This document shows, piece after piece, positions 8,402 to 21,846 of a stretch of 64,000 nt of DNA. A program made the translations under genes and the position numbers. Source of the stretch: Mesorhizobium sp. ORS 3359. GTDB taxonomy: Bacteria; Pseudomonadota; Alphaproteobacteria; Rhizobiales; Rhizobiaceae. The notes under the pieces were generated by a model. The model saw nothing but the letters and a program-made list of their open reading frames with translations, searched no databases and had not been told where the DNA came from. The stretch is taken from positions 248,001 through 312,000 of the forward strand of contig CCNC01000046.1 of assembly GCA_000824845.1 (NCBI GenBank), read 5' to 3'. Positions within the stretch are counted from its first letter, which is position 1; each line of letters starts with the position of its first letter.

Positions 8402-9439
8402 TCAGCTCTTCTTGTCGATCAGATCCACCGCCAGCGCGGCAAGCAGCTTGACGGCCTCTCCGTAAGTCTTGGCCTTCTCGGGATTGGAGGCATTGCCGTC
8501 CAGCGCGCGGCGATAGACGCCCTGGCAGATCGCCGCCAGCCGAAAGAATGAGAAGGCCAGGAAGAAGGTCCAGTTGCCGATCTCGTCAAGGCCGCGCCGG
8601 CGGCAATAGGCCGCGACATAGGCCTCCTCGGACGGCAGGCCGGCCGCGGCGCGGTCGACGCCGCCGAGGCCGCGAAAGCCCGAGGCATGCGGCAGCCGCC
8701 ACTGCATGCATTGATAGGCGAGGTCGGCGAAGGGATGGCCGAGCGTCGACAACTCCCAGTCGAGCACCGCGATGACTTTCGGCGCATCGAGCGCGAACAT
8801 CATGTTGTCCAGCCGGTAGTCGCCATGGACGAGCGAAACGCGGCCGTCATCGGCCGGCATATGCGTCTCGAGCCACGCAACCAGCCTGTCGATATCGGCT
8901 ATGGTTTCGGTTTCGGAGGCCCGGTACTGGCCGGCCCAGCGCGCAAGCTGGCGTTCGAAATAGCTGCCGGGCTTGCCGAAGTCGCCAAGACCGACCGCGT
9001 CCACATCGACATTGTGCAGGGCGGCGAGCGTGGCATTCATGGCATCGTAGATCGCTGCCCGCTCGTCATTGCCGGAAGCGTCCGGCAGTGACGGATCCCA
9101 GAACACGCGGCCGGCGAGATATTCCATGACATAGAACATGCGGCCGATCGGCGATTCCTCGCCCGAGAGATGCAACATGCGCGGCACCGGCACAGCCGTG
9201 CCGGCCAGCGCCCGCATCACTCGGAATTCGCGGTCGACCTGGTGCGCGGATTTCAGCAATTGTCCCGGCGGCTTGGCGCGCAGCACGTAGCGGCCGCTGG
9301 TGGCGGTCAGGAGATAGGTCGGATTGGACTGTCCGGATTTGAATTTTTCAATGGCGGACAGACCGGCAAAACCCGGGACATGCGCCTCGAGATAGGGCGC
9401 AAGCGCCGCCTGGTCTATGGCACCGGCCTCGCCGCTCAT
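8402..9439 (-). CDS. APH-family phosphotransferase (ACAD10/11 N-domain type)
   Basis: 345 residues. Kinase motifs are intact: the catalytic loop LVHGDYRLDNMMF and the metal-binding VLDWELSTLGHPFADLAY. The N-terminal SGQSNPTYLL and YVLRAKPPGQLLKSAH segments match the phosphotransferase domain fused to acyl-CoA dehydrogenase in ACAD10/ACAD11. It is therefore unlikely to be an antibiotic kinase. In the Pseudomonas levulinate pathway a kinase of this fold (LvaA) phosphorylates 4-hydroxyacyl-CoA. Here it overlaps maoC by 4 bp and lies across a divergent promoter from an ACAD11-like dehydrogenase. The substrate is inferred, not shown. Confidence 0.88.
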   Translation of the reverse strand: MSGEAGAIDQAALAPYLEAHVPGFAGLSAIEKFKSGQSNPTYLLTATSGRYVLRAKPPGQLLKSAHQVDREFRVMRALAGTAVPVPRMLHLSGEESPIGRMFYVMEYLAGRVFWDPSLPDASGNDERAAIYDAMNATLAALHNVDVDAVGLGDFGKPGSYFERQLARWAGQYRASETETIADIDRLVAWLETHMPADDGRVSLVHGDYRLDNMMFALDAPKVIAVLDWELSTLGHPFADLAYQCMQWRLPHASGFRGLGGVDRAAAGLPSEEAYVAAYCRRRGLDEIGNWTFFLAFSFFRLAAICQGVYRRALDGNASNPEKAKTYGEAVKLLAALAVDLIDKKS

Positions 9440-9921
9440 GCGTTCTCGGGCTGACGCTCGATCAGCGTCAAGGTCAGCCAGCGCGCTGTCAGCGCCGGCT
9501 TCTTCGAGCCTTCGATCTCGATGGTCACGTCATGCGCCGTCTGCACCCAGCCGGATGGCCTCACCTTGACGTCGGCCAGCACGAAACGGGTGCGGATGCG
9601 GGAGCCCGTCTTCACCGGCGCCAGGAAGCGCAGCGTGTCGAAGCCGTGGTTGACGCCCATCTTGGTATTTTCCAGCGGCGGCATGGTCTCGAAGGTCATC
9701 GCCGACAAAAGCGACAGCGACAGGAAACCATGCGCGATGGTGCCGCCGAACGGCGTCTCGCGCATGGCGCGCTCGGGATCGCAATGGATGAATTGGTGGT
9801 CGTCGGTCGCATCGGCGAACTGGTCGATCATGCGCTGCGTCACCGTTCGCCAGGGCGAGACGCCGACCTCCTTGCCGACGCTTGCCAGAAGCGTATCGAG
9901 ACTGATCGGTTCCACGCTCAT
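9436..9921 (-). CDS. MaoC-like (R)-specific enoyl-CoA hydratase
   Basis: 161 residues, a single hot-dog domain. The hydratase signature is visible: DQFADATDDHQFIHCDPERA (catalytic Asp and His) followed by FGGTIAHGFLSLSLLS. GGAGGA precedes the ATG at 9921. It overlaps the kinase gene as ATGA. It probably hydrates a trans-2-enoyl-CoA within the acyl-CoA pathway encoded around it. Confidence 0.93.
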   Translation of the reverse strand: MSVEPISLDTLLASVGKEVGVSPWRTVTQRMIDQFADATDDHQFIHCDPERAMRETPFGGTIAHGFLSLSLLSAMTFETMPPLENTKMGVNHGFDTLRFLAPVKTGSRIRTRFVLADVKVRPSGWVQTAHDVTIEIEGSKKPALTARWLTLTLIERQPENA

Positions 9922-9942
9922 GTCCTCCGCACCCCCGTCCGT

Positions 9943-10012
9943 TCCTTGAACCGGGCGTCTTATTCCTTGAACCCCGCCCGGATTCCTTGAATCGGGCGTC
10001 TTACTCCTTGAA
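9943..10012. repeat. Four tandem ~20.5-bp units with TTCAAGGA core
   Basis: On the minus strand TTCAAGGA occurs four times, at plus positions 9943, 9964, 9984 and 10005, with spacings of 21, 20 and 21 bp. Two units also share the sequence AAGACGCCC. The rightmost unit is the last codons and stop of the SDR gene, so the array seems to have grown by duplication of that 3' end into the SDR-maoC gap. Confidence 0.8.
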
Positions 10013-10816
10013 CAACGTCATTCCGTGCTGCACCGACTGGCCGCCGTCGATGGGCAGGATGGCGCCGGTGACATAGCTTCCGGCACGGCTGCACAAATAA
10101 AGCGTTGCGCCGGCAATGTCATCCGCCACGCCGATGCGGCCGAGGGGAACATGGTTACCAACATGTTTCGCCTGCTCCTCGGTCGCTGTGGCGAAGGCCG
10201 TCATACGGCTCTGGAAAGGACCGGGGGCAAAGGCGTTGACGGTGATGCGGCGGGCGGCGAACTCGATCGCCAGCGTGCGCGTCAGATGATGCACGGCGGC
10301 CTTGGAGGCGGCGTAGGAATAGGCGTCGTCGGCAAGCGACTGGGTGCCCATCACCGAGCCGAGATTGATCACGCGGGCCGGATCCTCGTCGCTTGCCGCC
10401 CCCTCAAGCAGCGGCAAAAGCTCCCGCGTCAGGTGGAAGACGGCGGTGACGTTGACGCCGAACACCTTGGCCCAGGCGTGGTAGGGGAACTCCTGCAGCG
10501 GCGCGCCCCAGGAAATGCCGGCATTGTTGACCAGGATATGCAGGCGCTCCGAGCGCGCCTTCACCTCGGCGACAAGAGCGGCGATGCCCGCTTCGCTGGA
10601 CACGTCGCCGGCAAAGCCCTCGGCCTGGCCGGAGCCGCCGAGCGCGTTCAATTCGTTGGCGACCTTGGCGCAATCCTCGCCCTTGCGCGAGGCGATCATC
10701 ACATGAGCGCCGGCGCGGACCAGGCCGGTCGCCACCATGCGGCCAATGCCGGTCGCCGCGCCCGTCACCAGCGCAGTCTTGCCGGCGACCGAGAACAGCC
10801 TGTCCAGATAGCTCAT
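10001..10816 (-). CDS. Short-chain dehydrogenase/reductase
   Basis: 271 residues from the ATG at 10816, chosen because GGAGG lies 6 bases upstream; the longer in-frame start would place that site inside the coding region. Classical SDR motifs: TALVTGAATGIGRM for the cofactor, LHILVNNAGISWG, and the catalytic NLGSVMG...YSYAASK. It is likely a 3-hydroxyacyl-CoA or related dehydrogenase. It is the first gene of the minus-strand acyl-CoA operon (SDR, MaoC, kinase, broken SDR). Confidence 0.92.
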   Translation of the reverse strand: MSYLDRLFSVAGKTALVTGAATGIGRMVATGLVRAGAHVMIASRKGEDCAKVANELNALGGSGQAEGFAGDVSSEAGIAALVAEVKARSERLHILVNNAGISWGAPLQEFPYHAWAKVFGVNVTAVFHLTRELLPLLEGAASDEDPARVINLGSVMGTQSLADDAYSYAASKAAVHHLTRTLAIEFAARRITVNAFAPGPFQSRMTAFATATEEQAKHVGNHVPLGRIGVADDIAGATLYLCSRAGSYVTGAILPIDGGQSVQHGMTLFKE

Positions 10817-10930
10817 TGCATTCCTCCGCACCCTCGATCAAACCGGCGAGGGACTCGCGTTGACAAGGCTAGCCGAAGTACGGTCATCCTTGCGACGGGT
10901 AAAGATTTATCTGCGAAGGGACCGGAAGCG

Positions 10931-12172
10931 ATGGCGGATATGAATCTCGGCATGACCGAGCGGCTGAAGCCGATCCACCAGCGTGTGGCGGCTATGGTTC
11001 GCGACGAGATCGCGCCACTCGGGGAGGAGTTTCTCGCCGAAATCGGCAAGGAGGGCGACCGCTGGGCCTACACCGCCAGGCAAACCGAGATCCTCGAAGG
11101 CTTGAAGAAGACGGCGCGGGAGCGCGGGTTGTGGAACTTCTGGCTGACCGATTCCAAACGCGGCTACGGTCTTTCCACCGTCGAATATGCCTATCTGGCG
11201 GAGGAGATGGGCAAGGCGCATCTCGGCGCCGAGACCTTCAACTGCTCGGCGCCCGACACCGGCAACATGGAGGTGCTGGAGCGCTACGGATCGGAGGCGC
11301 ACAAGCGCGACTGGCTGGAGCCGCTGCTGGAGGGCCGGATACGCTCGGCCTATCTGATGACCGAGCCGGACGTCGCCTCCTCGGACGCGACCAACATCTC
11401 GATGCGCTGCGAGCGGCAGGGCGGCGATTATGTGCTGAACGGCGAGAAATGGTGGGCGTCCGGCGCTGGCGATCCGCGCTGCGCCATCTATATCGTCATG
11501 GTCAGGACCGGATCGGACGAGGAGCCGCAGCATCGCCGGCATTCGATGATCCTGGTGCCTTCCGACAGCAAGGGCATCACCAAATTGCGGCCGATGCAGG
11601 TCTATGGCGACGATGACGCCCCGCACGGCCATATGCATCTGAGATTCGAGAATGTGCGGGTGCCGACGACGAACCTGATCCTTGGCGAGGGCAGGGGCTT
11701 CGAGATCGCGCAGGGGCGGCTGGGGCCGGGCCGCATCCATCACTGCATGCGCGCCATCGGCCAGGCCGAGATGGCGCTGGAGATGCTGTGCCAGCGCTCG
11801 GTGCGGCGCGAGGCCTTCGGCCAGTCGCTGGCCAAGCTCGGCGCCAATTTCGACATCATCGCCGAATGCCGCATGGAGATCGAGATGGCGCGGCTCTTGT
11901 GCCTGAAGGCCGCGTGGATGATCGACCAGGGAGACGCGCGCGCGGCCGCCCCCTGGATCAGCCAGATCAAGGTGGTGGCGCCCCGCGTCGCGCTGAAGGT
12001 CACCGACGAGGCGGTGCAGATGTTCGGCGCGCAAGGCATCAGCCAGGACACGCCGCTCGCCCGCTCCTGGACGCATCTGCGGACGCTGCGGCTGGCGGAC
12101 GGGCCGGACGCCGTGCACCGGCGCCAGGTGGCGCGCGCGGAACTGAAGAAATACACGCAGGACAAAGTCTGA
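10931..12172 (+). CDS. Acyl-CoA dehydrogenase, ACAD10/11-like
   Basis: 413 residues from the ATG at 10931. Its segments resemble the dehydrogenase domain of human ACAD11: YLMTEPDVASSDATN, LNGEKWWASGAGDPRC, RHSMILVPSDSKGI, LILGEGRGFEIAQGRLGPG, RIHHCMRAIG and LRLADGPDAVH. In that family the enzyme acts together with an APH-fold kinase on 4-hydroxyacyl-CoA. Here the kinase is a separate gene (8402-9439) across the divergent promoter. The following MDR oxidoreductase starts 5 bp after the stop. Confidence 0.93.
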   Translation: MADMNLGMTERLKPIHQRVAAMVRDEIAPLGEEFLAEIGKEGDRWAYTARQTEILEGLKKTARERGLWNFWLTDSKRGYGLSTVEYAYLAEEMGKAHLGAETFNCSAPDTGNMEVLERYGSEAHKRDWLEPLLEGRIRSAYLMTEPDVASSDATNISMRCERQGGDYVLNGEKWWASGAGDPRCAIYIVMVRTGSDEEPQHRRHSMILVPSDSKGITKLRPMQVYGDDDAPHGHMHLRFENVRVPTTNLILGEGRGFEIAQGRLGPGRIHHCMRAIGQAEMALEMLCQRSVRREAFGQSLAKLGANFDIIAECRMEIEMARLLCLKAAWMIDQGDARAAAPWISQIKVVAPRVALKVTDEAVQMFGAQGISQDTPLARSWTHLRTLRLADGPDAVHRRQVARAELKKYTQDKV

Positions 12173-12177
12173 TAGCC

Positions 12178-13215
12178 ATGACGCTTCCATCGCAAATGCG
12201 TGGTCTGCTGCTTGTCGGCGACGGCTATACAAAGACGCCTTCCGCGGCCGCGCTGGAAGCGATGGAGCCTTACCTTGAGCCCGGCAGCATAGCCGTGCCG
12301 GAGCCGGGGCCGACACAGGCGCTGATCAAGGTCAGCCTCGCCTCGATCAACCCCTCCGACATCGCCTTCATCAAGGGCCAGTACGGCCAGCCGCGGGTGA
12401 AGGGCCGCCCGGCGGGTTTCGAGGGCGTCGGCATGGTCGTCGCCACCGGCGACGACCCGTACGCAAAAAGCCTGGCGGGCAAGCGGGTCGCCTTCGCCAC
12501 CGGCATGTCGAACTGGGGGGCCTGGGCGGACTATGCGGTTGCCGAGGCCGCGTCCTGCATCCCGCTCATCGACACGGTGCGCGACGAGGATGGCGCCGCG
12601 ATGATCGTCAATCCGCTGACCGCCTTGGCCATGTTCGACATCGTCGAGCTGGAGGGCGAAAAGGCCTTCATCATGACCGCAGGCGCCAGCCAGCTCTGCA
12701 AGCTGATCATCGGGCTGGCGAAAGAAGCGGGTTTCCGGCCGATCGTCACCGTGCGCCGTGACGAGCAGATCCCATTGCTGAAGAACCTCGGCGCCGCCCA
12801 TGTGCTCAATGAGAAGGCGGCGGATTTCGAGGCCGTGCTGCGCGAAACCGTGAAGGCCGAGCAGCCGCGCATCTTCCTTGACGCGGTCACCGGCCCGCTG
12901 GCTTCGACTATTTTCAATGCCCTGCCGAAGCGGGCACGCTGGGTCGTCTATGGCCGGCTAGACGCCGAGCCGACGGTTATCCGCGAGCCGGGGCAACTGA
13001 TCTTCCAGCACAAACGCGTCGAGGGTTTCTGGCTGGCCGAATGGATGCGCCAGTTCCGCGACAGGCTGGGTCCGGCGGTGCTGGAGGCGCAGAAGCGCTT
13101 TTCCGACGGACGCTGGTCGACCGATGTCACGGCGGTCGTGCCGCTGGACGAGGCGATGGCACGGCTGCCGGGCGAGCTCGCCAAGCCCAACGGAAAGGTG
13201 TTCATCAGGCCGTAA
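12178..13215 (+). CDS. MDR-family alcohol dehydrogenase / quinone oxidoreductase-like
   Basis: 345 residues. The GroES-like N-domain (LIKVSLASINPSDIAFIKGQYG, GRPAGFEGVGMVVATG) is followed by a Rossmann domain with the variant loop FIMTAGASQLCKLIIGLAKEAGF. The Cys/His ligands of zinc alcohol dehydrogenases are not seen, so it is probably a zinc-independent NAD(P)H enone or quinone reductase. It is translated immediately after the ACAD gene and has no strong ribosome-binding site, which suggests coupling. Confidence 0.85.
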   Translation: MTLPSQMRGLLLVGDGYTKTPSAAALEAMEPYLEPGSIAVPEPGPTQALIKVSLASINPSDIAFIKGQYGQPRVKGRPAGFEGVGMVVATGDDPYAKSLAGKRVAFATGMSNWGAWADYAVAEAASCIPLIDTVRDEDGAAMIVNPLTALAMFDIVELEGEKAFIMTAGASQLCKLIIGLAKEAGFRPIVTVRRDEQIPLLKNLGAAHVLNEKAADFEAVLRETVKAEQPRIFLDAVTGPLASTIFNALPKRARWVVYGRLDAEPTVIREPGQLIFQHKRVEGFWLAEWMRQFRDRLGPAVLEAQKRFSDGRWSTDVTAVVPLDEAMARLPGELAKPNGKVFIRP

Positions 13216-13413: not shown

Positions 13414-14580
13414 ATGATGGTGACCAAGCCGGTTTTCGACCGTTTGGGGTTTTGGCTTTGGGTCGGGTCGTTTCTGATTGTGCTTGGCCTGGCGCTGTGG
13501 TCGCCCGACGCGCGTTCGGTGGTCCATATCTATAGACACGGCAGTAAAGCTTTTCTCGCCGGAGAACCGCTGTATCAGGTCGAAGTCGCCATGGGGTACC
13601 TATACGCTCCCGCCTTCGCCGTCCTCTATGCTCCGCTGCTGAAGCTCGGGCCGTATCTGGGCAATGTTTTGTGGCACATGCTGGGTTTCGGGGCGCTTAC
13701 CTTTGCCGCGATGCGCCAGGTCCGCAAGGTGGGCGGCGAGGAGCAGACATGGCTCCTGTCTTTTGGCCTCTTCCTCGCCCTGCCGGTTTCGCTGGCAGCG
13801 CTTCGCAATGGCCAGGCGACGATCCTGCTTACCGGGGCGTGCTGGTTTCTGACGCTTTCGGCACTCGAGGGGCGCCGCGCCGAATGCTTCTTCTGGGCCA
13901 TGCTTGCGATCGTCGCCAAGCCGACCGCGATCATCATGCTGCTGCTGGCGGGAGCGCTGCGCCCCAGGCTGATACCGGCGCTGGCGCTGGCAGTCCTCGT
14001 CGTGCTCGTCATCCCCTATGGCTTTGCGTCGACCGACTATATCAACGCGCAATATCACGATTTCTTCCGGCTGCTGACTTCGATGACCGTCGATCCGACC
14101 GGCCCCTTCGTCCCGGCTGACTTCACGGCGCCTTTCACGCGGTTTGGGATGCCGATTTCCGAGTTCGACGCGACGATCGTGCGCGTCGTCGCCGGTTTGC
14201 TCACACTTTGGCTGGTGCTCCAGTTCGATCGCAGGCTGGACTCCAACCTCAGCGGACTCGCCATCTTCCTCGCCGCGGCATTCTACATGTGCGTCTTCAA
14301 TCCGCGGGTCGAGCAGAACACCTATGCCATGGTGGCAGTGCCCGCCGGTCTCTCCGTCGCCTTGCTTTGGCGGGAGAAGGGAGCCGGTGCCATGCGCTGG
14401 TTCCTGGCAACGCTCCTCTTCGTCACCGGACTGACTAGTCTGGACCTGCGATTGCACGATCTGTTTCACCTGTGGTTCTGGCCGGTCAGCGTCACAATAA
14501 TTGCCTGCGTGCTCATCGGCTGGCTCTGGACGCAAGACAGACAGAAGGCGCCAGCCGCGGGAGCAGTCGCGCATGGCTGA
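13414..14580 (+). CDS. GT87 (DUF2029) polyprenyl-phosphate-sugar transferase
   Basis: 388 residues with about ten hydrophobic segments, starting WLWVGSFLIVLGLALW. An early periplasmic loop holds acidic and basic residues (SPDARSVVHIYRHGSKAF), and GNGQATILL-like text appears as RNGQATILLTGACWFL, typical of GT-C family 87. Such enzymes take a sugar from a polyprenyl phosphate carrier and add it to an envelope glycan or lipid on the outer face. Start ATG 13414 gives MMVTK. The gene overlaps the next by 8 bp and heads the four-gene sugar operon. Confidence 0.82.
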   Translation: MMVTKPVFDRLGFWLWVGSFLIVLGLALWSPDARSVVHIYRHGSKAFLAGEPLYQVEVAMGYLYAPAFAVLYAPLLKLGPYLGNVLWHMLGFGALTFAAMRQVRKVGGEEQTWLLSFGLFLALPVSLAALRNGQATILLTGACWFLTLSALEGRRAECFFWAMLAIVAKPTAIIMLLLAGALRPRLIPALALAVLVVLVIPYGFASTDYINAQYHDFFRLLTSMTVDPTGPFVPADFTAPFTRFGMPISEFDATIVRVVAGLLTLWLVLQFDRRLDSNLSGLAIFLAAAFYMCVFNPRVEQNTYAMVAVPAGLSVALLWREKGAGAMRWFLATLLFVTGLTSLDLRLHDLFHLWFWPVSVTIIACVLIGWLWTQDRQKAPAAGAVAHG

Positions 14581-15541
14581 GAGGCTCGACGTCATCGCGC
14601 CGTTCTTCAACGAGGCCGAATCCGCGATTGCCTTCGTCGGGCTGCTCGACACACTCGAGGCGGCCGTGGCGGAGTGCTTCGGCATGACGGTGCGCAAGAT
14701 CCTCGTCGATGACGGCAGCCATGACGGCAGCGCCGAAAAATTCGCGGCGGCGCTGTCCGGTTCCTGGGAGATCGTGCGGCTCAGCCGCAATTTCGGCAAG
14801 GAAGCCGCGGTGCTCGCCGGTCTCGACCATTCCCGCGGCGACCTGGTCCTCATCATGGACTCCGACCTGCAGCATTCCGTGGACATCAGCCTGAAGATGA
14901 TCGCCGAGTTGGTCGACAACCCGGAGGTCGATGTCGTCTTTGCGCAGAACGACCGGCGGGAGGGCAGTTGGCGGCGCAGCCAGCTGGCGCGGCTTTTCTA
15001 CACGCTGATCAACAGCAGCCAGCGCTTCGATATCCCCGAAAATGCCGGGGACTTCCGCGTCATGCGCGGCGCCGTGGCGCGTGCCTTGACCAGCGTGCGC
15101 GACAAGCGTCGTTTCAACAAGGGCCTGTTCGCCTGGGCGGGCTTTCGCCAGAAGGCGGTGCTTTATTCACCGGAAAGCCGCGCCAGCGGCACATCGAAAT
15201 GGAGCCGGTTCAACCTGATCGCGTTCTCGCTCGAAGGGTTCACCTCGTTTTCCGTGATCCCGCTGCGCATCATCAGCCTTATCGGATTGCTGGCGGCATT
15301 TGCCGGTCTCGCCTATGGCGTGAAAGTGGTCTTCGAGGTGCTGTTCTACGGCATCGCCGTGCCCGGCTATCCAAGCATCATGGTCGCCGTCGTGTTGCTG
15401 GGCGGCCTCAACCTGGCACTGCTCGGCCTGATCGGCGAATATGTCTGGGTCACGCTCAGCGAAAGCAAGGACCGGCCCGTCTACATCGTGCGCGACGTGC
15501 TGCATGGCAATGCCGCCGAGCAGGTTGCTCCCGACAGATGA
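14573..15541 (+). CDS. GT2 polyprenyl-phosphate glycosyltransferase (GtrB/ArnC/FlmF-like)
   Basis: 322 residues. The GT-A domain begins LDVIAPFFNEAE; ILVDDGSHDGS and LIMDSDLQHSVD carry the nucleotide-sugar and metal-binding Asp residues. FRVMRGAVARAL and the helix around RFNKGLFAWAGF are typical of dolichyl/undecaprenyl-phosphate sugar synthases. Two transmembrane helices follow near residues 235-305. It should load a sugar from a nucleotide donor onto polyprenyl phosphate on the cytoplasmic face. It overlaps both neighbours (8 bp and 4 bp). Confidence 0.93.
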   Translation: MAERLDVIAPFFNEAESAIAFVGLLDTLEAAVAECFGMTVRKILVDDGSHDGSAEKFAAALSGSWEIVRLSRNFGKEAAVLAGLDHSRGDLVLIMDSDLQHSVDISLKMIAELVDNPEVDVVFAQNDRREGSWRRSQLARLFYTLINSSQRFDIPENAGDFRVMRGAVARALTSVRDKRRFNKGLFAWAGFRQKAVLYSPESRASGTSKWSRFNLIAFSLEGFTSFSVIPLRIISLIGLLAAFAGLAYGVKVVFEVLFYGIAVPGYPSIMVAVVLLGGLNLALLGLIGEYVWVTLSESKDRPVYIVRDVLHGNAAEQVAPDR

Positions 15542-16359
15542 CCAGGTCGATCCGCTTGATCGCCGACGATTACGGGCTGGCGCCGGGAGTCTCGAGCGCG
15601 ATCCTCGACCTGATCGAGCGCGGCCGCCTGACCGGAACCGGATGCATGACCGGTTTTCCCGAATGGGAAGAGGCGGCGGCGCGCATCCGGCCGTTCCGCC
15701 GTCGGGCTGCCGTCGGGCTGCATCTGACCCTCACAGATCAGGCCGCCGCGACCGGCCCGTCCAGCCTGGCGCCGGAAGGGAAGCTTCCCGGGCTCGCATC
15801 CCTCGCGCTGCCCGTGCGGCGCGGGCGTATCGACGAGCCGGACGTTCATGCCGAGCTCGACGCCCAGTACGACCGCTTCGTCGAAGCGCTGGACGGCCCG
15901 CCCGACTATATCGACGGACACCAGCATGTGCATTTTCTTCCCGTGGTGCGGAATTGGCTGCTCGCGCGGTTCGGGGCAAGCGCGCACAAGCCGGCGCTGC
16001 GAGGGGCGCCGGGACTTCCGGGCATGGATGCTGCGGCGGCCAAGATCGCGGCGGTCGCCGCTCTCGCCGCAGGGTTCAACGGATCAATGCGCCGGGCCGG
16101 CTTCAGCGTGATGACGCCGCTTTCCGGGATCTATGACTGGCGGCAGCCGGAGAGGTTCGCTTCAACGCTGCGCGCCGCGATCAAGACCTTGCCCGAACAA
16201 GGGGTGTTCATGTGCCATCCGGGCCATGTCGATGACATTTTGCGGGCGCGAGACCCGATGCAGGCCGCGCGCGAGGTTGAGTACGCGGTTCTTTCCTCGC
16301 AGGATTTCGGCGACATCCTAGACATGGCCGGAACCCGCGTCATGGATGGCGGCGCATGA
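15538..16359 (+). CDS. ChbG/HpnK (YdjC) family carbohydrate deacetylase
   Basis: 273 residues. The metal-binding signatures of the family are present: LIADDYGLAPGVSSAI at the N-terminus, AAVGLHLTLTD, YIDGHQHVHFLP and FMCHPGHVDD near the end. Relatives remove acetyl groups from chito-oligosaccharides (ChbG), an aminosugar hopanoid (HpnK), or undecaprenyl-phosphate-N-acetylgalactosamine (Francisella NaxD). Its place between a polyprenyl-sugar synthase and a GtrA flippase favours the NaxD-like role. No signal peptide is seen, so it would act in the cytoplasm. It overlaps both neighbours as ATGA. Confidence 0.9.
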   Translation: MTRSIRLIADDYGLAPGVSSAILDLIERGRLTGTGCMTGFPEWEEAAARIRPFRRRAAVGLHLTLTDQAAATGPSSLAPEGKLPGLASLALPVRRGRIDEPDVHAELDAQYDRFVEALDGPPDYIDGHQHVHFLPVVRNWLLARFGASAHKPALRGAPGLPGMDAAAAKIAAVAALAAGFNGSMRRAGFSVMTPLSGIYDWRQPERFASTLRAAIKTLPEQGVFMCHPGHVDDILRARDPMQAAREVEYAVLSSQDFGDILDMAGTRVMDGGA

Positions 16360-16766
16360 GCAATGCCGGCCAGCCGCAGCGTTCGACTGGCAACAAGATC
16401 GTCCGCTTCGCTCTTGTCGGACTGGTCAACACCGGCATCGACCTCACCGCATTCTACCTGCTGCTCAAGCTCGCGGCGCCGGCTTTGGCCGCCAATGTCG
16501 GCGCCTGGTTCGTCGCGGTTCTCTTTTCCTTCGTGGCGAACCGCTTCTGGTCGTTCGAGCGGGACCCGGACATCCAGCTGCACCATTCCTTCCTGCGCTT
16601 CGTGTCGCTAGGAGCGCTGATCTCGCTCGGCGTATCGAGCCTCTCGATCGCGGCGCTGGCAGGGGCCATCGGCGTGTGGCCGGCCAAGATCATCGGCGTC
16701 GTGGTGGCGGCCGTCCTAAACTTTTTGGCGGCGCGCTGGTCGATCGAAGGGCGGTTGTTGAGGTGA
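16356..16766 (+). CDS. GtrA-like membrane protein (putative polyprenyl-sugar flippase)
   Basis: 136 residues with four predicted membrane helices: IVRFALVGLVNTGIDLTAFY, VGAWFVAVLFSFVANRFWSF, the SLGALISLGVSSLS segment and KIIGVVVAAVLNFLAARW. These match GtrA, thought to flip polyprenyl-phosphate sugars across the inner membrane. It is the last gene of the operon and overlaps the deacetylase by 4 bp. Confidence 0.9.
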   Translation: MSNAGQPQRSTGNKIVRFALVGLVNTGIDLTAFYLLLKLAAPALAANVGAWFVAVLFSFVANRFWSFERDPDIQLHHSFLRFVSLGALISLGVSSLSIAALAGAIGVWPAKIIGVVVAAVLNFLAARWSIEGRLLR

Positions 16767-17018: not shown

Positions 17019-17843
17019 TTAGCGCAAGCTCTCCAGATCGCGGATGCGCTTGGCGCCGGCGGCTTCCAATTGCCTCGTCACAGCGCCAATCAGGGTTTCG
17101 GCGACCACGAACAGAGCGGCGGACGAATCCCAGGCCGAAGGCACGGCAGTGCGTCCGGCGATCACATGGCGGGCGAAGCGGGCGATCGGCGACAGCCATT
17201 GGTCGGTAAAGAGGATGATCTGCACGCCGCGGTGATGCGCCTTCTCGGCGAAGCGGACGAGACTTTCCTGGTAGCGGCGGATGTCGAAGATCACCAGCAC
17301 GTCACGCTTGCCCATGTCGATCAGGCGGTCGCGCCAGATGCTCTCCTGGCCTGAGAGGTGATAGACATCCGGCTGGATGATGGCCAGATGGGCGGCCATG
17401 TAGCGCGCCAGCGGATCGGTGAAGCGGCCGCCGATGAGGAAGGTCTTGCCGCGCCGCTCGGCAAGCCGCGCCGCGATGTCGGCCAGCTGTTTGTCGGTGA
17501 GGTGGCGGAAGGTCTCGCGCAAATTGTCGAGCGTCGCCTCCAGCATCGGCGAGACGGCGCTGCCGGCTGAGTCCGGATTGAGCGTGCGCGAGGCGGGCGA
17601 CTGCAATTGCGCGGCCAGCTCATCCTGCAATGCCGACTGGAATTCGGGGTAGTTCTGGAAACCCAGCCTGGCGACGAAACGCAGGATCGTCGGCGAGGAC
17701 ACGCCGGCCGCGGCCGAGAATTCGGCGACGGTCTTCAGCCCGGTCAAAGGATAGTTGGCAATCAGCGTCTGGGCGGCGCGGCGCTCGCCGGCCGGCATCG
17801 CGCCGATGCGGTCGGAGATCAGTTCGGCAATGCTGGAAATCAT
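17019..17843 (-). CDS. MurR/RpiR family transcriptional regulator
   Basis: 274 residues from the ATG at 17843. The N-terminal helix-turn-helix is clear (TVAEFSAAAGVSSPTILRFVARLGFQNYPEF), followed by a SIS sugar-binding domain with KTFLIGGRFTDPLARYMAAHL and RDVLVIFDIRRYQESLVRFA. The typical ligands are phosphosugars, although rhizobial members also control amine and amino-acid genes. It is divergent from the N-formylglutamate amidohydrolase-like gene and probably controls that cluster from the shared 145-bp region. Confidence 0.9.
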   Translation of the reverse strand: MISSIAELISDRIGAMPAGERRAAQTLIANYPLTGLKTVAEFSAAAGVSSPTILRFVARLGFQNYPEFQSALQDELAAQLQSPASRTLNPDSAGSAVSPMLEATLDNLRETFRHLTDKQLADIAARLAERRGKTFLIGGRFTDPLARYMAAHLAIIQPDVYHLSGQESIWRDRLIDMGKRDVLVIFDIRRYQESLVRFAEKAHHRGVQIILFTDQWLSPIARFARHVIAGRTAVPSAWDSSAALFVVAETLIGAVTRQLEAAGAKRIRDLESLR

Positions 17844-17916
17844 GGTTTTCCCCCACCTGTTGACCCGCCGCCGCCGTTTTCCCGAATTCGCGTTTGACAA
17901 AGCCGATCAAACTGTA

Positions 17917-17988: not shown

Positions 17989-18807
17989 ATGGAGAAAGCA
18001 CGGCCCGCCAGCCTTGCACCGTCGGAGACCGTAAGGGTGACCAACCCTGGCGGCTCGAGCCCCTTCGTCTTCACCTGCGACCACGCCTCGAACTTCCTGC
18101 CCGCCGAATTCGGCACGCTGGGGCTGCCCCTTGAAGACCTTTCCCGCCACATCGCCTGGGATCCCGGCGCGCTGCCCGTCGCCAGCCGCATGGCCGAGGC
18201 GCTCGACGCCACTTTGGTCGAGACCCGTGTGTCGCGCCTCGTCGTCGACTGCAACCGGCCGCTCGACGCGCCCGACCTCGTGCCGCCGGTCAGCGAGACG
18301 ACGGTCATTTCGGGAAATTCCGGCCTGTCCGATAAGCAGCGCGCCGCGCGGGTCGACCTTGCCTGGCGCCCGTTTCATGATGCCATCTCCGGGATCGTCG
18401 ACCGGCGGCTGGCGCGTGGACAGGAGACGCGGCTGGTCTCGGTGCACTCCTTCACGCCGGTCTACAAGGGCAAGAGCCGGCCCTGGCATATCGGCATCAT
18501 CCATGATGACGACCGCAGGCTGGCGGCGCCGCTGATATCGGCGCTGCAGCGGCTTTCGGGCGTCGCCGTCGGCGTCAACGAACCCTATTCGCCGGCCGAC
18601 CGCGTCTACTTCACGCTGGAGCGGCATGCGCGCTCGCGCGGCCTTGCCTGCGCGATGATCGAAATCCGCAACGACGAAATCGCCGGCGAGACCGGGCAGC
18701 GGAAATGGGCGGATCTGCTCACAGGCATATTCTCGAATCTGGAGCCCGAGGAGGCCAGGGGCTCCCGACAACGCGCAATGGGAAAGTCAGTACAGTCGGC
18801 CAGCTAA
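17989..18807 (+). CDS. N-formylglutamate amidohydrolase family protein
   Basis: 272 residues. Family features include FVFTCDHASNFLP near the N-terminus (metal-binding Asp-His), RLVVDCNRP, LVSVHSFTPVYKGKSRPWHIGI and ACAMIEIRNDEI near the C-terminus. HutG-type enzymes cleave N-formylglutamate. No histidine-degradation genes are nearby, and a glutamine-synthetase-like ligase sits in the cluster, so hydrolysis of a gamma-glutamyl or other N-acyl glutamate is an alternative. It is followed after 19 bp by the permease. Confidence 0.85.
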   Translation: MEKARPASLAPSETVRVTNPGGSSPFVFTCDHASNFLPAEFGTLGLPLEDLSRHIAWDPGALPVASRMAEALDATLVETRVSRLVVDCNRPLDAPDLVPPVSETTVISGNSGLSDKQRAARVDLAWRPFHDAISGIVDRRLARGQETRLVSVHSFTPVYKGKSRPWHIGIIHDDDRRLAAPLISALQRLSGVAVGVNEPYSPADRVYFTLERHARSRGLACAMIEIRNDEIAGETGQRKWADLLTGIFSNLEPEEARGSRQRAMGKSVQSAS

Positions 18808-18826
18808 GAACCAACAGGGGACTAAA

Positions 18827-20389
18827 ATGTCAGCGCAAGACTATACGGAACATGACAAGCACGAGGACTTAAAGGTCCTGCACGGAATGGGCTATGCCCA
18901 GGAATTGTCGCGAAGCATGAGCCGCTTCTCGAACTTCGCAATCTCTTTCTCGATCATCTGCATCCTTTCAGGCGGCATCAACTCCTTCGCCCAGGCGACG
19001 TCTTCGATAGGCGGCGCCGGCGCGGGCATAGGCTGGATCGTCGGCTGTGCCGTTTCCGGGTTCTTCGCCCTCGCCATGGCGCAGATCGCCTCGGCGTTCC
19101 CGACAGCGGGCGGCCTCTATCACTGGGCCTCGATCCTCGGCAACCGGTTCACCGGCTGGCTCACCGCCTGGCTCAACCTGCTCGGCCTGATCACCGTGCT
19201 GGGCGCCATCAACATCGGCACCGCCTTCTTCTTCGTCGGAACGTTCGGAAGCTGGTTCGGGCTGACCGGCACGGCGGGCGAGGTCGTCGGATTTGTCGCC
19301 GTCATCACGGTGATCCAGGCGCTCTGCAACCATTTCGGAATCAAGCTGACCGCCATGCTGACCGACGCTTCCGGCTTCCTGATCCTTGGCGCAACGGCGG
19401 TGCTGATCGTCGCCTGCCTGGTGTTTGCCCCGGCGATCGACGTTACCAGGCTCTGGACGTTCACCAACTACTCGGGCGACGCAGGCGGCGGGGTTTTCCC
19501 GCAGTCGGATTCCATGACCTATCTGTTCCTGCTCTGCCTGCTGCTGCCGGTCTACACCATCACTGGCTATGACGCGTCGGCGCATACTTCGGAAGAAACG
19601 CTGAAGGCAGCGCATTCCGTGCCAAGGGCAATCATCTCGTCGGTGCTGTGGTCGTCGCTTATCGGTTGGGCGATGGTCTGCGCGATCACATTGGCGATCC
19701 CGGACCTGGCTGCCGGCGCCAAGCAGGGCTGGAGCGTCTTCTTCTCGACCATGGATGCGATCCTGCCCGTATGGCTCAAGGAGCTTCTCTATCTGGCAAT
19801 CCTGATCTCGCAGTTCCTCTGCGGCCTCGCCACGGTGACCTCGGCTTCGCGCATGTTGTTCGCCTTCTCGCGTGACGGCGGCATGCCGGTCGGGTCGGCC
19901 GGGCTCGCCAAGGTCAGCCCAAGCTGGCGCACACCGGTCAACGCGATCTGGACCGCGGCGATCCTCGAGATCATCTACGTCTTCCTCGCCCAGTTCATCT
20001 CGATCGGCGGCACGAACATCTACACAATCGTCGTCAATTCGACGCTGGTCTTCCTGTTCTTGTCCTTCACCATTCCGATCGTGCTCGGCATGCTCGCCTT
20101 CGGGACGGCGAAATGGCCAAAACCCGGCCCGTGGAACCTCGGCGGTGGCCTGTTCAAGCTGTTTTGCATCCTGTCGGTCGTCGGCATGGCGATCATCTTC
20201 TACATTGCGGTTCAACCGCCAAACGACAAGGTGCTCTACATCACCATCGGCTTCATCATCTTGACCGCCGTGCTCTGGTTCGGCTTCGAGAACCGCCGCT
20301 TCCAGGGTCCGCCGATCGGCGAGCAGATCGCGGCGCGCCAGGCGGCGATCAAGGCGGCCGAGCAGGCGGTCGGCGAGACCGGCAACTGA
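18827..20389 (+). CDS. APC-superfamily amino acid/amine permease
   Basis: 520 residues with about twelve membrane helices. The N-terminal LSRSMSRFSNFAISFSIICILSG, the glycine-rich GGAGAGIGWIVGC and the AFPTAGGLYHWASILG segment are typical of the GABA/choline-permease branch of the APC superfamily. It is probably a proton-coupled uptake system for an amino acid or amine used by the downstream enzymes. An intrinsic terminator follows at 20402-20440. Confidence 0.88.
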   Translation: MSAQDYTEHDKHEDLKVLHGMGYAQELSRSMSRFSNFAISFSIICILSGGINSFAQATSSIGGAGAGIGWIVGCAVSGFFALAMAQIASAFPTAGGLYHWASILGNRFTGWLTAWLNLLGLITVLGAINIGTAFFFVGTFGSWFGLTGTAGEVVGFVAVITVIQALCNHFGIKLTAMLTDASGFLILGATAVLIVACLVFAPAIDVTRLWTFTNYSGDAGGGVFPQSDSMTYLFLLCLLLPVYTITGYDASAHTSEETLKAAHSVPRAIISSVLWSSLIGWAMVCAITLAIPDLAAGAKQGWSVFFSTMDAILPVWLKELLYLAILISQFLCGLATVTSASRMLFAFSRDGGMPVGSAGLAKVSPSWRTPVNAIWTAAILEIIYVFLAQFISIGGTNIYTIVVNSTLVFLFLSFTIPIVLGMLAFGTAKWPKPGPWNLGGGLFKLFCILSVVGMAIIFYIAVQPPNDKVLYITIGFIILTAVLWFGFENRRFQGPPIGEQIAARQAAIKAAEQAVGETGN

Positions 20390-20401
20390 CCTTCGCTTCA
20401 T

Positions 20402-20440
20402 GACCATGGCCGGCGCAATGCCGGCCATGGTCTCGTTTTT
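20402..20440 (+). terminator. Intrinsic terminator after permease gene
   Basis: GACCATGGCCGGC and GCCGGCCATGGTC form a perfect 13-bp stem with loop GCAAT, followed by TCGTTTTT. It separates the hydrolase-permease unit from the ligase gene. Confidence 0.85.
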
Positions 20441-20475
20441 CCCTTTCAAATTGACAGCATTGGAGCGCCAAAGGA

Positions 20476-21846
20476 ATGGCCGGGAATTTCTCGTTCGATC
20501 AGTTGAAGAAGGCGGTCTCAAACGGCGAGATCGACACGGTGCTGGCCTGCATCGTCGATATGCAGGGCCGGCTCGCGGGAAAGCGCTTCCTGGCCCAGTA
20601 TTTCGTCGATTCCGCGCATGGCGAGACGCATGGCTGCAACTATCTGCTCGCCTGCGACATCGATATGGAGCCGGTGCCCGGCTACAAGGCGGCGAGCTGG
20701 TCGAAGGGCTATGGCGACTTCGTCATGAAGCCGGACCTGTCGACGCTGCGGCGCATTCCGTGGCTGGAGAAGACGGCGCTGGTCATCTGCGACGTGCTCG
20801 ACCACCACACGCATGAGGATCTTGGGCACTCACCGCGCGCGATCCTGAAGAAGCAGGTCAAGCGCCTGGGGGAGCGCGGCTATATCGGCTATTTCGCCTC
20901 CGAGCTCGAATTCTACCTGTTCAGCGAGACCTACGAGTCCGCCCGCAAGAAGCACTGGCAAGGGCTCGACAGCGCTTCGCCCTATATCGGCGACTACCAG
21001 ATCGGCATCACCACCAAGGAAGAAGGCGTTATGCGCCGGCTTCGCAACGAGATGGAGGCCGCCGGCATCCCGATCGAGAACTCCAAGGGCGAGTGGGGCC
21101 CCGGCCAGGAAGAGATCAACGTGCGATATGCCGAGGCGCTCGAGATGGCCGACCGCCACGTCATCCTGAAGAACGGCGCCAAGGAGATCGCCGATTCCGA
21201 AGGCAAGGCCATCTCCTTCATGGCTAAGTACAATTACGGGCTCGCCGGCAATTCCAGCCACATCCACAATTCGCTGTGGAGCGCCGACGGCAAGACGCCG
21301 CTATTCTTCGACAAAAAGGCCGAGTGGACGCTGTCGAGCCTCGGCCAGCAATGGGCGGCCGGTCAGCTCAAATACGCCAAGGAGTTCACCTGGTTCCTGG
21401 CGCCTTACATCAACTCCTACAAGCGCTTCCAGGCAGGCACCTTCGCGCCGACCAAGATCATGTGGAGCGAGGACAACCGCACCGCCGGCTTCCGGCTCTG
21501 CGGCGAGGGCACCAAAGGCATCCGAATGGAATGCCGCATCGGCGGCGCCGACCTCAATCCCTATCTCGCCTTCGCGGCGCTGATCGCGTCGGGCCTCGCC
21601 GGCATCGACGAGAAGCTGGAGCTGCAGAAGCCTTTCGTCGGCGACGCTTACCAGGCCTCGCGCCTGCCCGAGATCCCGAAGACGCTGCGCGATGCTACCG
21701 AGACGCTGGCCAAGTCGAAGATGCTGAAGCAGGCCTTCGGCGAGGAGGTGATCGAGCACTATGTGCACACCGCCCGCTGGGAGCAGTTCGAATACGACCG
21801 CCGCATCACGGACTGGGAACTGCATCGGGGCTTCGAGCGGTATTGA
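20476..21846 (+). CDS. Glutamine synthetase family ligase (GlnA/PuuA-like)
   Basis: 456 residues. The catalytic domain is intact: YFASELEFYLF (metal-binding Glu), WGPGQEEINVRYAEALEMAD, GLAGNSSHIHNSLW and FRLCGEGTKGIRMECRIGGADLNPYLA. The tyrosine adenylylation loop of GlnA is not evident. Members of this branch attach glutamate to amines (gamma-glutamylation, as in PuuA). With the nearby alcohol and aldehyde dehydrogenases, an amino-alcohol or diamine is a plausible acceptor. The toxin-antitoxin pair begins about 80 bp downstream. Confidence 0.88.
   Translation: MAGNFSFDQLKKAVSNGEIDTVLACIVDMQGRLAGKRFLAQYFVDSAHGETHGCNYLLACDIDMEPVPGYKAASWSKGYGDFVMKPDLSTLRRIPWLEKTALVICDVLDHHTHEDLGHSPRAILKKQVKRLGERGYIGYFASELEFYLFSETYESARKKHWQGLDSASPYIGDYQIGITTKEEGVMRRLRNEMEAAGIPIENSKGEWGPGQEEINVRYAEALEMADRHVILKNGAKEIADSEGKAISFMAKYNYGLAGNSSHIHNSLWSADGKTPLFFDKKAEWTLSSLGQQWAAGQLKYAKEFTWFLAPYINSYKRFQAGTFAPTKIMWSEDNRTAGFRLCGEGTKGIRMECRIGGADLNPYLAFAALIASGLAGIDEKLELQKPFVGDAYQASRLPEIPKTLRDATETLAKSKMLKQAFGEEVIEHYVHTARWEQFEYDRRITDWELHRGFERY

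What the first reader, a model, noticed from the sequence alone, without database searches (positions are those of the whole stretch)
13414..16766. Candidate aminosugar envelope-modification operon: GT87, GT2, ChbG/HpnK deacetylase, GtrA
Four genes overlap by 4-8 bp, so they are almost certainly one unit. Their predicted roles form a complete route: GT2 loads a sugar on polyprenyl phosphate, the deacetylase frees an amino group, GtrA flips the lipid, and GT87 transfers the sugar outside. The logic parallels ArnC-ArnD-ArnEF-ArnT and Francisella FlmF-NaxD-FlmK, where NaxD is also a YdjC-family deacetylase. Use of a GT87 enzyme with a GtrA flippase in place of ArnT/FlmK and ArnEF would be a different assembly of the pathway. 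A free amine on lipid A or another surface glycan could change charge and peptide resistance.
Basis: partly seen in the sequence, partly recalled or inferred. Interest (0 to 1): 0.72.

Follow-up and report, generated by a model that had tools for sequence, protein, structure and literature searches.

The report
Aminosugar cassette with atypical GT87 transferase
A four-gene unit in Mesorhizobium, a soil bacterium that lives with legumes, probably puts a positively charged aminosugar on the cell envelope; it is built like a gene set seen in Acinetobacter, but its last enzyme is of another family and seems to lack the usual catalytic residue.

Summary
Window 13414-16766 (a Mesorhizobium genome) carries GT87, GT2, YdjC deacetylase and GtrA as one tight unit. 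The order is kept in 49 of 49 relatives examined, the genes are under purifying selection, and the unit sits at one site, with empty-site alleles elsewhere in the genus. The deacetylase keeps the five ChbG active-site residues, GT2 is closest to GtrB, and the GT87 model is closest to PimE. GtrA instead of ArnEF is not new: an Acinetobacter baumannii YdjC gene, probably naxD, lies in a YdjC-GT2-GtrA-ArnT-like cluster. New is the GT87, linked to YdjC only in Mesorhizobium in my samples. It appears to lack PimE's essential Asp (Ser/Thr in 49 of 49) but keeps donor-phosphate residues. Lipid A is a doubtful acceptor: passages on the lipid A of M. huakuii IFO 15243 mention no hexosamine substituent, though that species' NBRC 15243 genome carries the operon. 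I read it as a NaxD-like aminosugar cassette for a not yet known periplasmic acceptor.

The parts
13414..14580 (+). GT87-like GT-C glycosyltransferase (388 aa), PimE fold; EL1 Asp replaced by Ser35
   Evidence: PF09594 35 bits; model pLDDT 80.3, best PDB match PimE 9dm5 Z 24.6, rmsd 3.7 over 347 residues; S/T35, Q134, K169, R131, R298, E300 conserved in 49 of 49
14573..15541 (+). GT2 of GtrB type (322 aa), likely polyprenyl-phosphate sugar synthase
   Evidence: PF00535 85 bits; PDB GtrB sll0501 209 bits, ArnC up to 104 bits; phrog_841 GtrB-like 246.6 bits; DDGS and D-x-DLQ motifs kept in 49 of 49
15538..16359 (+). YdjC-family (ChbG/NaxD-like) deacetylase (273 aa), probably cytosolic
   Evidence: PF04794 165.4 bits; model pLDDT 93.5, best matches EF3048 and ChbG; D10, D11, H62, H128, H227 in 49 of 49; no TM-like segment
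16356..16766 (+). GtrA (136 aa), likely helps move the lipid-linked sugar across the membrane
   Evidence: PF04138 69.4 bits; four TM-like segments; lowest median dN/dS, 0.08
12166..13215 (+). left neighbour, zinc-binding dehydrogenase; border of the site, not part of the cassette
   Evidence: Pfam; found in 48 of 49 operon loci and directly beside RpiR in 3 operon-less genomes
17019..17855 (-). right neighbour, RpiR/SIS-type regulator, convergent; border of the site
   Evidence: Pfam; found in 46 of 49 operon loci

Best explanation
The operon encodes a NaxD-like aminosugar cassette. GT2 charges polyprenyl phosphate with an N-acetylhexosamine (GlcNAc or GalNAc); the cytosolic YdjC enzyme removes the acetyl group; GtrA helps bring the polyprenyl-phosphate hexosamine to the periplasmic face; the PimE-fold GT87 passes the hexosamine to an envelope acceptor, more likely LPS core, O-chain or another periplasmic glycan than lipid A. 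Shown here: gene order, linkage, families, predicted folds, active-site residues, selection. Inferred: the sugar, deacetylation on the lipid carrier, flipping, transfer and the acceptor.
For: Order kept in 49 of 49 and both 4-bp overlaps in 49 of 49; dN/dS 0.08-0.21; GT2 closest to GtrB, then ArnC; the five ChbG catalytic residues in 49 of 49; GT87 model closest to PimE with its phosphate-site residues kept. The same kinds of gene occur together with a PMT-like GT-C in 6 of 31 other YdjC loci and in A. baumannii, where NaxD is reported to deacetylate undecaprenyl-phosphate GalNAc. LPS polysaccharide of M. loti NZP2213 contains glucosamine.
Against: No biochemistry. The GT87 seems to lack the catalytic Asp, so its activity is not assured, and its Pfam score is weak. 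The glucosamine may be ordinary core GlcNAc or, by the paper's own footnote, reflect co-precipitated lipid A for some samples. No LPS gene lies among the nearest neighbours. YdjC enzymes can also act on free sugars (ChbG). The operon is absent from 64 of 146 genomes of the genus by the YdjC search, so it is not essential.
Confidence: 0.55

Rival explanations
1. Lipid A modification as in NaxD and Lgm: the hexosamine goes onto a lipid A phosphate. A phosphate oxygen needs no catalytic base, which would fit the missing Asp and the invariant arginines R131 and R298.
For: A. baumannii NaxD-dependent GalN goes to the lipid A 1-phosphate; the cluster around an A. baumannii YdjC gene has the same kinds of parts; M. 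loti lipid A has a 4' phosphate; acidless EL1 and R131, R298 in 49 of 49.
Against: Passages on the lipid A of M. huakuii IFO 15243 and M. loti MAFF303099 mention no hexosamine substituent, and L070 (M. huakuii NBRC 15243) carries the operon. A labile glycosyl-phosphate could have been lost in preparation. ArnT, a lipid A phosphate enzyme, keeps an equivalent Asp according to the PimE paper.
Confidence: 0.25
2. The GT87 protein is not the transferase: it has lost catalysis and helps assembly, as PIGU uses a GT-C fold for another task, and another GT-C of the genome does the transfer.
For: EL1 Asp replaced in 49 of 49; PIGU is the second-best structural match, Z 22.3; three PMT_2 genes exist elsewhere in the genome.
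Against: Median dN/dS 0.18; phosphate-site residues Q134 and K169 in 49 of 49; fixed linkage with GT2; other clusters of this kind each hold one GT-C.
Confidence: 0.12
3. A Gtr-type O-chain glycosylation set, with a YdjC enzyme that trims a free or glycan-bound sugar and not the lipid-linked donor.
For: GT2 is GtrB-like (246.6 bits) and GtrA matches the phage GtrA family (25.1 bits).
Against: The 4-bp overlaps tie YdjC between GT2 and GtrA in 49 of 49, and YdjC recurs with GT2 in clusters outside the genus.
Confidence: 0.06
4. Hopanoid biosynthesis: the deacetylase is HpnK.
For: Same Pfam family; weak HpnK score, 53.6 bits.
Against: HpnK cut-off is 232.6 bits; no PF13243 hopene-cyclase match in the genome; flanks are acyl-CoA and amino-acid genes.
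Confidence: 0.02

Closest known systems
Acinetobacter baumannii YdjC cluster (probably the naxD operon; CP040041)
   Same: YdjC, GtrB-like GT2, GtrA and a GT-C enzyme in one tight cluster; NaxD makes lipid-linked GalN for the envelope
   Different: The GT-C is ArnT-like (186 bits against the ArnT model, cut-off 567), not GT87; the order is YdjC-GT2-GtrA-GT-C; YdjC is 29% and GT2 36% identical; lipid A is the reported acceptor there
Bordetella pertussis lgmABCD
   Same: lgmA-C are required to add glucosamine to lipid A phosphates; that LgmC is a YdjC-like enzyme is recalled
   Different: LgmB is an ArnT orthologue (a reference title), and lgmD is not essential; no Lgm sequence was compared here
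ArnC-ArnD-ArnEF-ArnT
   Same: Logic of lipid-linked sugar, deacylation, flipping and transfer (recalled); ArnC and ArnT folds are related to the window's GT2 and GT87
   Different: GT2 scores 111.5 bits against ArnC (cut-off 529); the deacetylase is YdjC and not ArnD (an ArnD structure is a distant fold match); GtrA and not ArnEF
GtrA-GtrB-GtrX O-antigen conversion
   Same: GT2 and GtrA match the GtrB and GtrA phage families
   Different: A deacetylase is added and the GT-C is GT87; GT87 and YdjC match no PHROG at E 0.001
PimE (GT87, mycobacteria)
   Same: Fold (Z 24.6) and phosphate-site residues
   Different: EL1 Asp58 corresponds to Ser/Thr35 or Val36, and D160 to R131
Mycobacterial/corynebacterial PpgS system
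   Same: Lipid-linked HexNAc synthase plus further glycosyltransferases implicated in putting GalN on a cell-wall glycan
   Different: The window's GT2 scores only 36.3 bits against PpgS (cut-off 370); neither 'deacetylase' nor 'GtrA' occurs in the paper searched

Membership tests
NaxD-type aminosugar cassette | YdjC deacetylase with complete active site | tested here: met
   D10, D11, H62, H128, H227 in 49 of 49
NaxD-type aminosugar cassette | Adjacent polyprenyl-phosphate GT2 and GtrA | tested here: met
   49 of 49 relatives; families
NaxD-type aminosugar cassette | ArnT-like (PMT) GT-C | tested here: not met
   Pfam gives GT87 and not PMT/PMT_2 at E 0.001; so it works like, but is not filed as, this architecture
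NaxD-type aminosugar cassette | Deacetylates lipid-linked HexNAc | not testable with these tools
   needs an enzyme assay
GT87 (Pfam PF09594) | Family score above cut-off | tested here: met
   35 bits, cut-off 25
GT87 with PimE-type catalysis | EL1 aspartate as base | tested here: not met
   S/T35 in 49 of 49, D in 23 of 30 other GT87s aligned, S or T in 3 of those 30; loop alignment of middling reliability
GT87 with PimE-type catalysis | Phosphate-site Tyr, Gln and Lys | tested here: met
   Q134 and K169 in 49 of 49; Y64 in 23 of 23 aligned; PimE Y92, Q163, K195
ArnC equivalog | Model above cut-off | tested here: not met
   111.5 bits, cut-off 529
PgfS equivalog | Model above cut-off | tested here: not met
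   195.5 bits, cut-off 500
HpnK (hopanoid) | Model above cut-off and hopanoid genes | tested here: not met
   53.6 bits, cut-off 232.6; no PF13243 match in the genome
ChbG chitin disaccharide deacetylase | Equivalog model above cut-off | tested here: not met
   84.5 bits, cut-off 227; active-site residues are nevertheless shared
GtrB-like GT2 | GT-A domain with C-terminal TM segments and GtrB family match | tested here: met
   phrog_841 246.6 bits; three TM-like segments after residue 220

The most novel reading that the evidence does not exclude
A GT87 subfamily that works without the EL1 aspartate: it keeps the polyprenyl-phosphate donor site but has a rebuilt acceptor side (S/T35, R131, R298, E300), and so passes a lipid-linked hexosamine to an anionic acceptor such as a phosphate, or uses D236 or E300 as a new base. 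It would be a new kind of last step for bacterial aminosugar decoration, carried by 82 of 146 Mesorhizobium genomes searched (by YdjC) and possibly relevant to the legume host.
Probability: 0.25. Interest if true: 0.65.

Novelty: new variant of a known kind. Interest (0 to 1): 0.45.

Why it matters
If right, one aminosugar-decoration module can swap its last enzyme between GT-C families (ArnT-like elsewhere, GT87 here), and a GT-C enzyme may work without the aspartate that the PimE paper calls equivalent in PimE, ALG6, ArnT and PglB. It would also point to a positively charged envelope decoration in many Mesorhizobium strains, whose lipid A is studied for effects on the legume host, and it makes a direct test possible in a harmless laboratory organism.

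Tried and rejected
HpnK reading: rejected on score and on absence of a PF13243 match. ArnC equivalog: rejected on score. GtrA for ArnEF as a novelty: rejected by the A. baumannii cluster. A GT87-YdjC link in Sphingomonas (H15, product name 'glycosyltransferase family 87 protein'): not counted, since that protein has no Pfam hit at E 0.001 and the neighbouring GT-A has no TM-like segment. Sequence search of the PDB with the GT87 protein and with its profile A1: only designed helical repeats, judged chance. Promoter and terminator scan: 1 promoter-like site on the other strand (0.7 expected) and 5 terminator-like (3.8 expected), so uninformative. Tying E300 to the aminosugar: weakened, because the orphan paralogues L025 and L026, with no GT2 or YdjC in their 4.1-kb loci, share it.

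Results against my reading, and rows dropped. Ser or Thr at the EL1 column is not unique to Mesorhizobium: of the 30 other GT87s, L122 and L141 have S and L142 has T there, and 3 have N and 1 P. The 30 came from 19 of the 46 GT87-bearing genomes, which I chose from the strong and the weak ends of the list; one of the 30 (L143) is below the Pfam cut-off. The profile A3 used only 18 of the 30, rows that I picked as canonical, so the invariant Asp in A3 is partly chosen. The profile comparison of A1 with A3 is marginal (E 0.013, probability 3.3%) and leaves out EL1; the PimE alignment also starts after EL1, so no call aligns PimE D58 itself. The Foldseek E-value for PimE is modest, 5.2e-4. ArnT's Z of 14.8 is near what unrelated helical models can reach by that tool's own note. 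Linkage counts use draft genomes, in which a link across a contig break would be missed. The list of YdjC loci is the best 80 of 151.

Literature: searches listed no paper that I recognised as being about this operon. The search naming GtrA and YdjC together gave two papers, judged irrelevant from the listing alone. Most subscription journals are not in that library.
Full report
Observation. Four intact ORFs lie on the + strand at 13414-14580, 14573-15541, 15538-16359 and 16356-16766 with overlaps of 8, 4 and 4 bp. Pfam gives GT87 (35 bits, cut-off 25), Glycos_transf_2 (85), YdjC (165.4) and GtrA (69.4). The window lies in a 6.86-Mb genome in 213 contigs; its nearest named relatives by YdjC are Mesorhizobium, up to 92% identical.

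Conservation. One search kept 80 of 151 YdjC relatives. The best 49 (L027-L075; 47 titled Mesorhizobium, one 'Hyphomicrobiales bacterium' MAG, one 'Bacterium M00') all hold GT87, GT2, YdjC and GtrA in this order; GtrA is cut by the locus end in L064 and L074. The two 4-bp overlaps are exact in 49 of 49; the GT87/GT2 junction is an 8-bp overlap in 34, a 1-bp gap in 14 and a 4-bp gap in 1. Lowest pairwise identities among the 49 are 49%, 69%, 60% and 61% (GT87, GT2, YdjC, GtrA). Median dN/dS of the window against 10 of the 49 is 0.18, 0.11, 0.21 and 0.08. The left neighbour ADH is found in 48 of 49 and the right neighbour RpiR in 46 of 49; of the three without RpiR, L064 and L074 end soon after the operon and L043 does not. 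YdjC of this type is in 82 of 146 genomes of the genus. GT87 of this type was in 23 of 61 genomes, all 23 among the 37 of the genus, none among the 24 others of the order. Of 14 operon-less genomes of the genus, 8 keep ADH; in 3 of these 8, RpiR begins 20-29 bp after the ADH match, an empty site; in the other 5 no RpiR lies in the stretch held. So the operon is present or absent at one site. I did not work out whether it was gained or lost.

GT2. The closest solved structure by sequence is GtrB-type sll0501 (209 bits), then ArnC (97-104 bits). NCBIfam puts PgfS (195.5) before ArnC (111.5), both under their cut-offs, and PHROGs gives GtrB-like O-antigen conversion (246.6 bits). Three TM-like segments lie near the C terminus. 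This fits a polyprenyl-phosphate sugar synthase; the sugar cannot be read from sequence.

YdjC. A model with pLDDT 93.5 matches EF3048 and ChbG best. The ChbG paper (PMC9402603, passages read) proposes D10 as base, D11, H61 and H125 as metal ligands and H206 as acid. The alignment puts these at D10, D11, H62, H128 and H227 here; all are present in 49 of 49. No TM-like segment was found, so the enzyme should act in the cytosol, before any flipping. By score it is neither an HpnK nor a ChbG equivalog, and the genome has no PF13243 match.

GT87. The model (pLDDT 80.3, pTM 0.85) matches PimE best by Foldseek (E 5.2e-4) and by VIA-align (9dm5, Z 24.6, rmsd 3.7 A over 347 residues; then PIGU 8imx Z 22.3; ArnT 5f15 Z 14.8, rmsd 4.3 over 272). 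In PimE (PMC12041525, passages read) D58A and D58N are dead; K195A, Y92A and Q163A are dead and concern the phosphate; D160 serves the acceptor. Through a profile of 18 GT87s aligned to PimE and an alignment of 30 PF09594-matched proteins of other genomes of the class with 10 Mesorhizobium rows, Y92, Q163 and K195 correspond to Y64, Q134 and K169; Q134 and K169 are kept in 49 of 49 and Y64 in 23 of 23 aligned. The EL1 column is D in 23 of the 30 others, N in 3, S in 2, P in 1 and T in 1; in the 49 operon copies it is T in 27 and S in 22. If anchored on Y40 and PimE Y62 instead, the partner is V36, also 49 of 49. No position from 26 to 61 is acidic in every copy; the nearest, 45, is E or D in 43 of 49 and K in the window. 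By the same route PimE D160 corresponds to R131, and W319, H321, H322 to E300, N302, T303, all 49 of 49. In the model a helix starts at residue 37, so 35-36 lie at its tip, as PimE D58 lies at the apex of JM1. Weak points: the loop has middling confidence (block mean 71); the profile comparison is marginal and does not cover EL1; no call aligns PimE D58 itself; S or T also occurs in 3 of the 30 others.

Linkage elsewhere. In 289 genomes of the class, 46 have YdjC and 46 have PF09594 GT87; 12 hold both, and only the window's own genome has them on one contig (read from the place tables). In 398 genomes of the phylum 102 and 51 have them; 27 hold both: in the 9 Mesorhizobium genomes among these the two lie about 1.3 kb apart, in the other 18 they are never within 20 kb; the nearest pair is 33 kb apart (place tables). 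Draft contigs may hide links. In the 31 other YdjC loci (L076-L106), 6 hold YdjC, GT2, GtrA and a PMT-like GT-C, 4 hold YdjC, GT2 and PMT-like, 5 hold smaller sets, 16 show YdjC alone, and 0 show GT87. Some loci are short, and the PMT queries were partly taken from these loci: Pfam supports PMT_2 above cut-off in L076, L090, L096 and L106, below it in L083, and not at all in L098 and L105. In A. baumannii CP040041, YdjC, GT2, GtrA and an ArnT-like protein lie in a row with overlaps of 4 and 1 bp and a 9-bp gap. That this YdjC is NaxD is inferred: the four A. baumannii records, three of chromosome size, show one YdjC place each, and the literature speaks of a naxD operon. So the architecture has a known counterpart; the GT87 is the new part.

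Acceptor. NaxD is described as deacetylating undecaprenyl-phosphate GalNAc before addition to lipid A (PMC11279074, passages), on the 1-phosphate in A. baumannii (PMC12330716, a preprint, passages). One study found that overexpressed naxD was not sufficient for colistin resistance (PMC6635527, passages). For Mesorhizobium, lipid A of M. loti MAFF303099 is partly methylated P-4-GlcNN-GlcNN-GalA (PMC4103559, passages), and that of M. huakuii IFO 15243 has the same backbone (PMC5644692, passages); the passages mention no hexosamine substituent, and I did not read either paper whole. L070, titled M. huakuii NBRC 15243, carries the operon; that IFO and NBRC 15243 are one strain is recalled. Whether MAFF303099 carries it was not tested. 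The polysaccharide part of M. loti NZP2213 LPS contains glucosamine (PMC6274867, passages with a table); L053, M. loti DSM 2626, carries the operon, and its identity with NZP2213 is recalled. Such a composition cannot tell GlcN from GlcNAc. I therefore prefer an LPS core, O-chain or other glycan acceptor, with low confidence, and keep a lipid A phosphate as the main rival, since labile glycosyl-phosphates can be lost and a missing base suits a phosphate acceptor.

Verdict. The operon is real and conserved, and the pathway logic is sound. It is a variant of a known kind: a NaxD-like aminosugar cassette whose ArnT-type enzyme is replaced by an atypical GT87. The question of most interest is how that GT87 works without the aspartate.

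Noticed in passing
L152:4980-8787 (A. baumannii CP040041): A 2025 preprint says that GalN is added to lipid A by an unknown enzyme, yet the YdjC gene, probably naxD, is followed by GT2, GtrA and an ArnT-like gene: an obvious candidate.
   Followed up: partly
L079:7974-8753 and L080-L082: In Agrobacterium vitis and Allorhizobium loci the YdjC gene stands without detectable GT2, GtrA or GT-C, and in L079 the metal-ligand Asp11 reads Gly: perhaps a decaying remnant.
   Followed up: no
L025:1489-2667, L026:1495-2652 (genome G005): Two GT87 paralogues of the operon type (45% and 44% identical) without GT2 or YdjC in their loci, sharing S35, R298 and E300.
   Followed up: no
G000:C21:37855-38205 (L146), G000:C198:9698-10048 (L147): Two further GtrA genes in the same genome; L146 has a cut-off ORF at its edge that looks GtrB-like by eye, which suggests another Gtr-like set.
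   Followed up: no
window 17989-21846: N-formylglutamate amidohydrolase family, amino-acid permease and glutamine-synthetase-like genes beside an RpiR regulator: looks like an amino-acid or polyamine catabolic cluster; nothing seen to tie it to the cassette.
   Followed up: no
window 8402-13215: APH-type phosphotransferase, MaoC, SDR, acyl-CoA dehydrogenase and zinc dehydrogenase, a cluster that accompanies most of the 49 operon loci.
   Followed up: no
L122 (genome G433) against L125 (genome G336): Two GT87s of one genus, otherwise alike in the EL1 stretch, differ at the EL1 Asp column: S in L122, D in L125. A natural comparison for how needed the Asp is.
   Followed up: no
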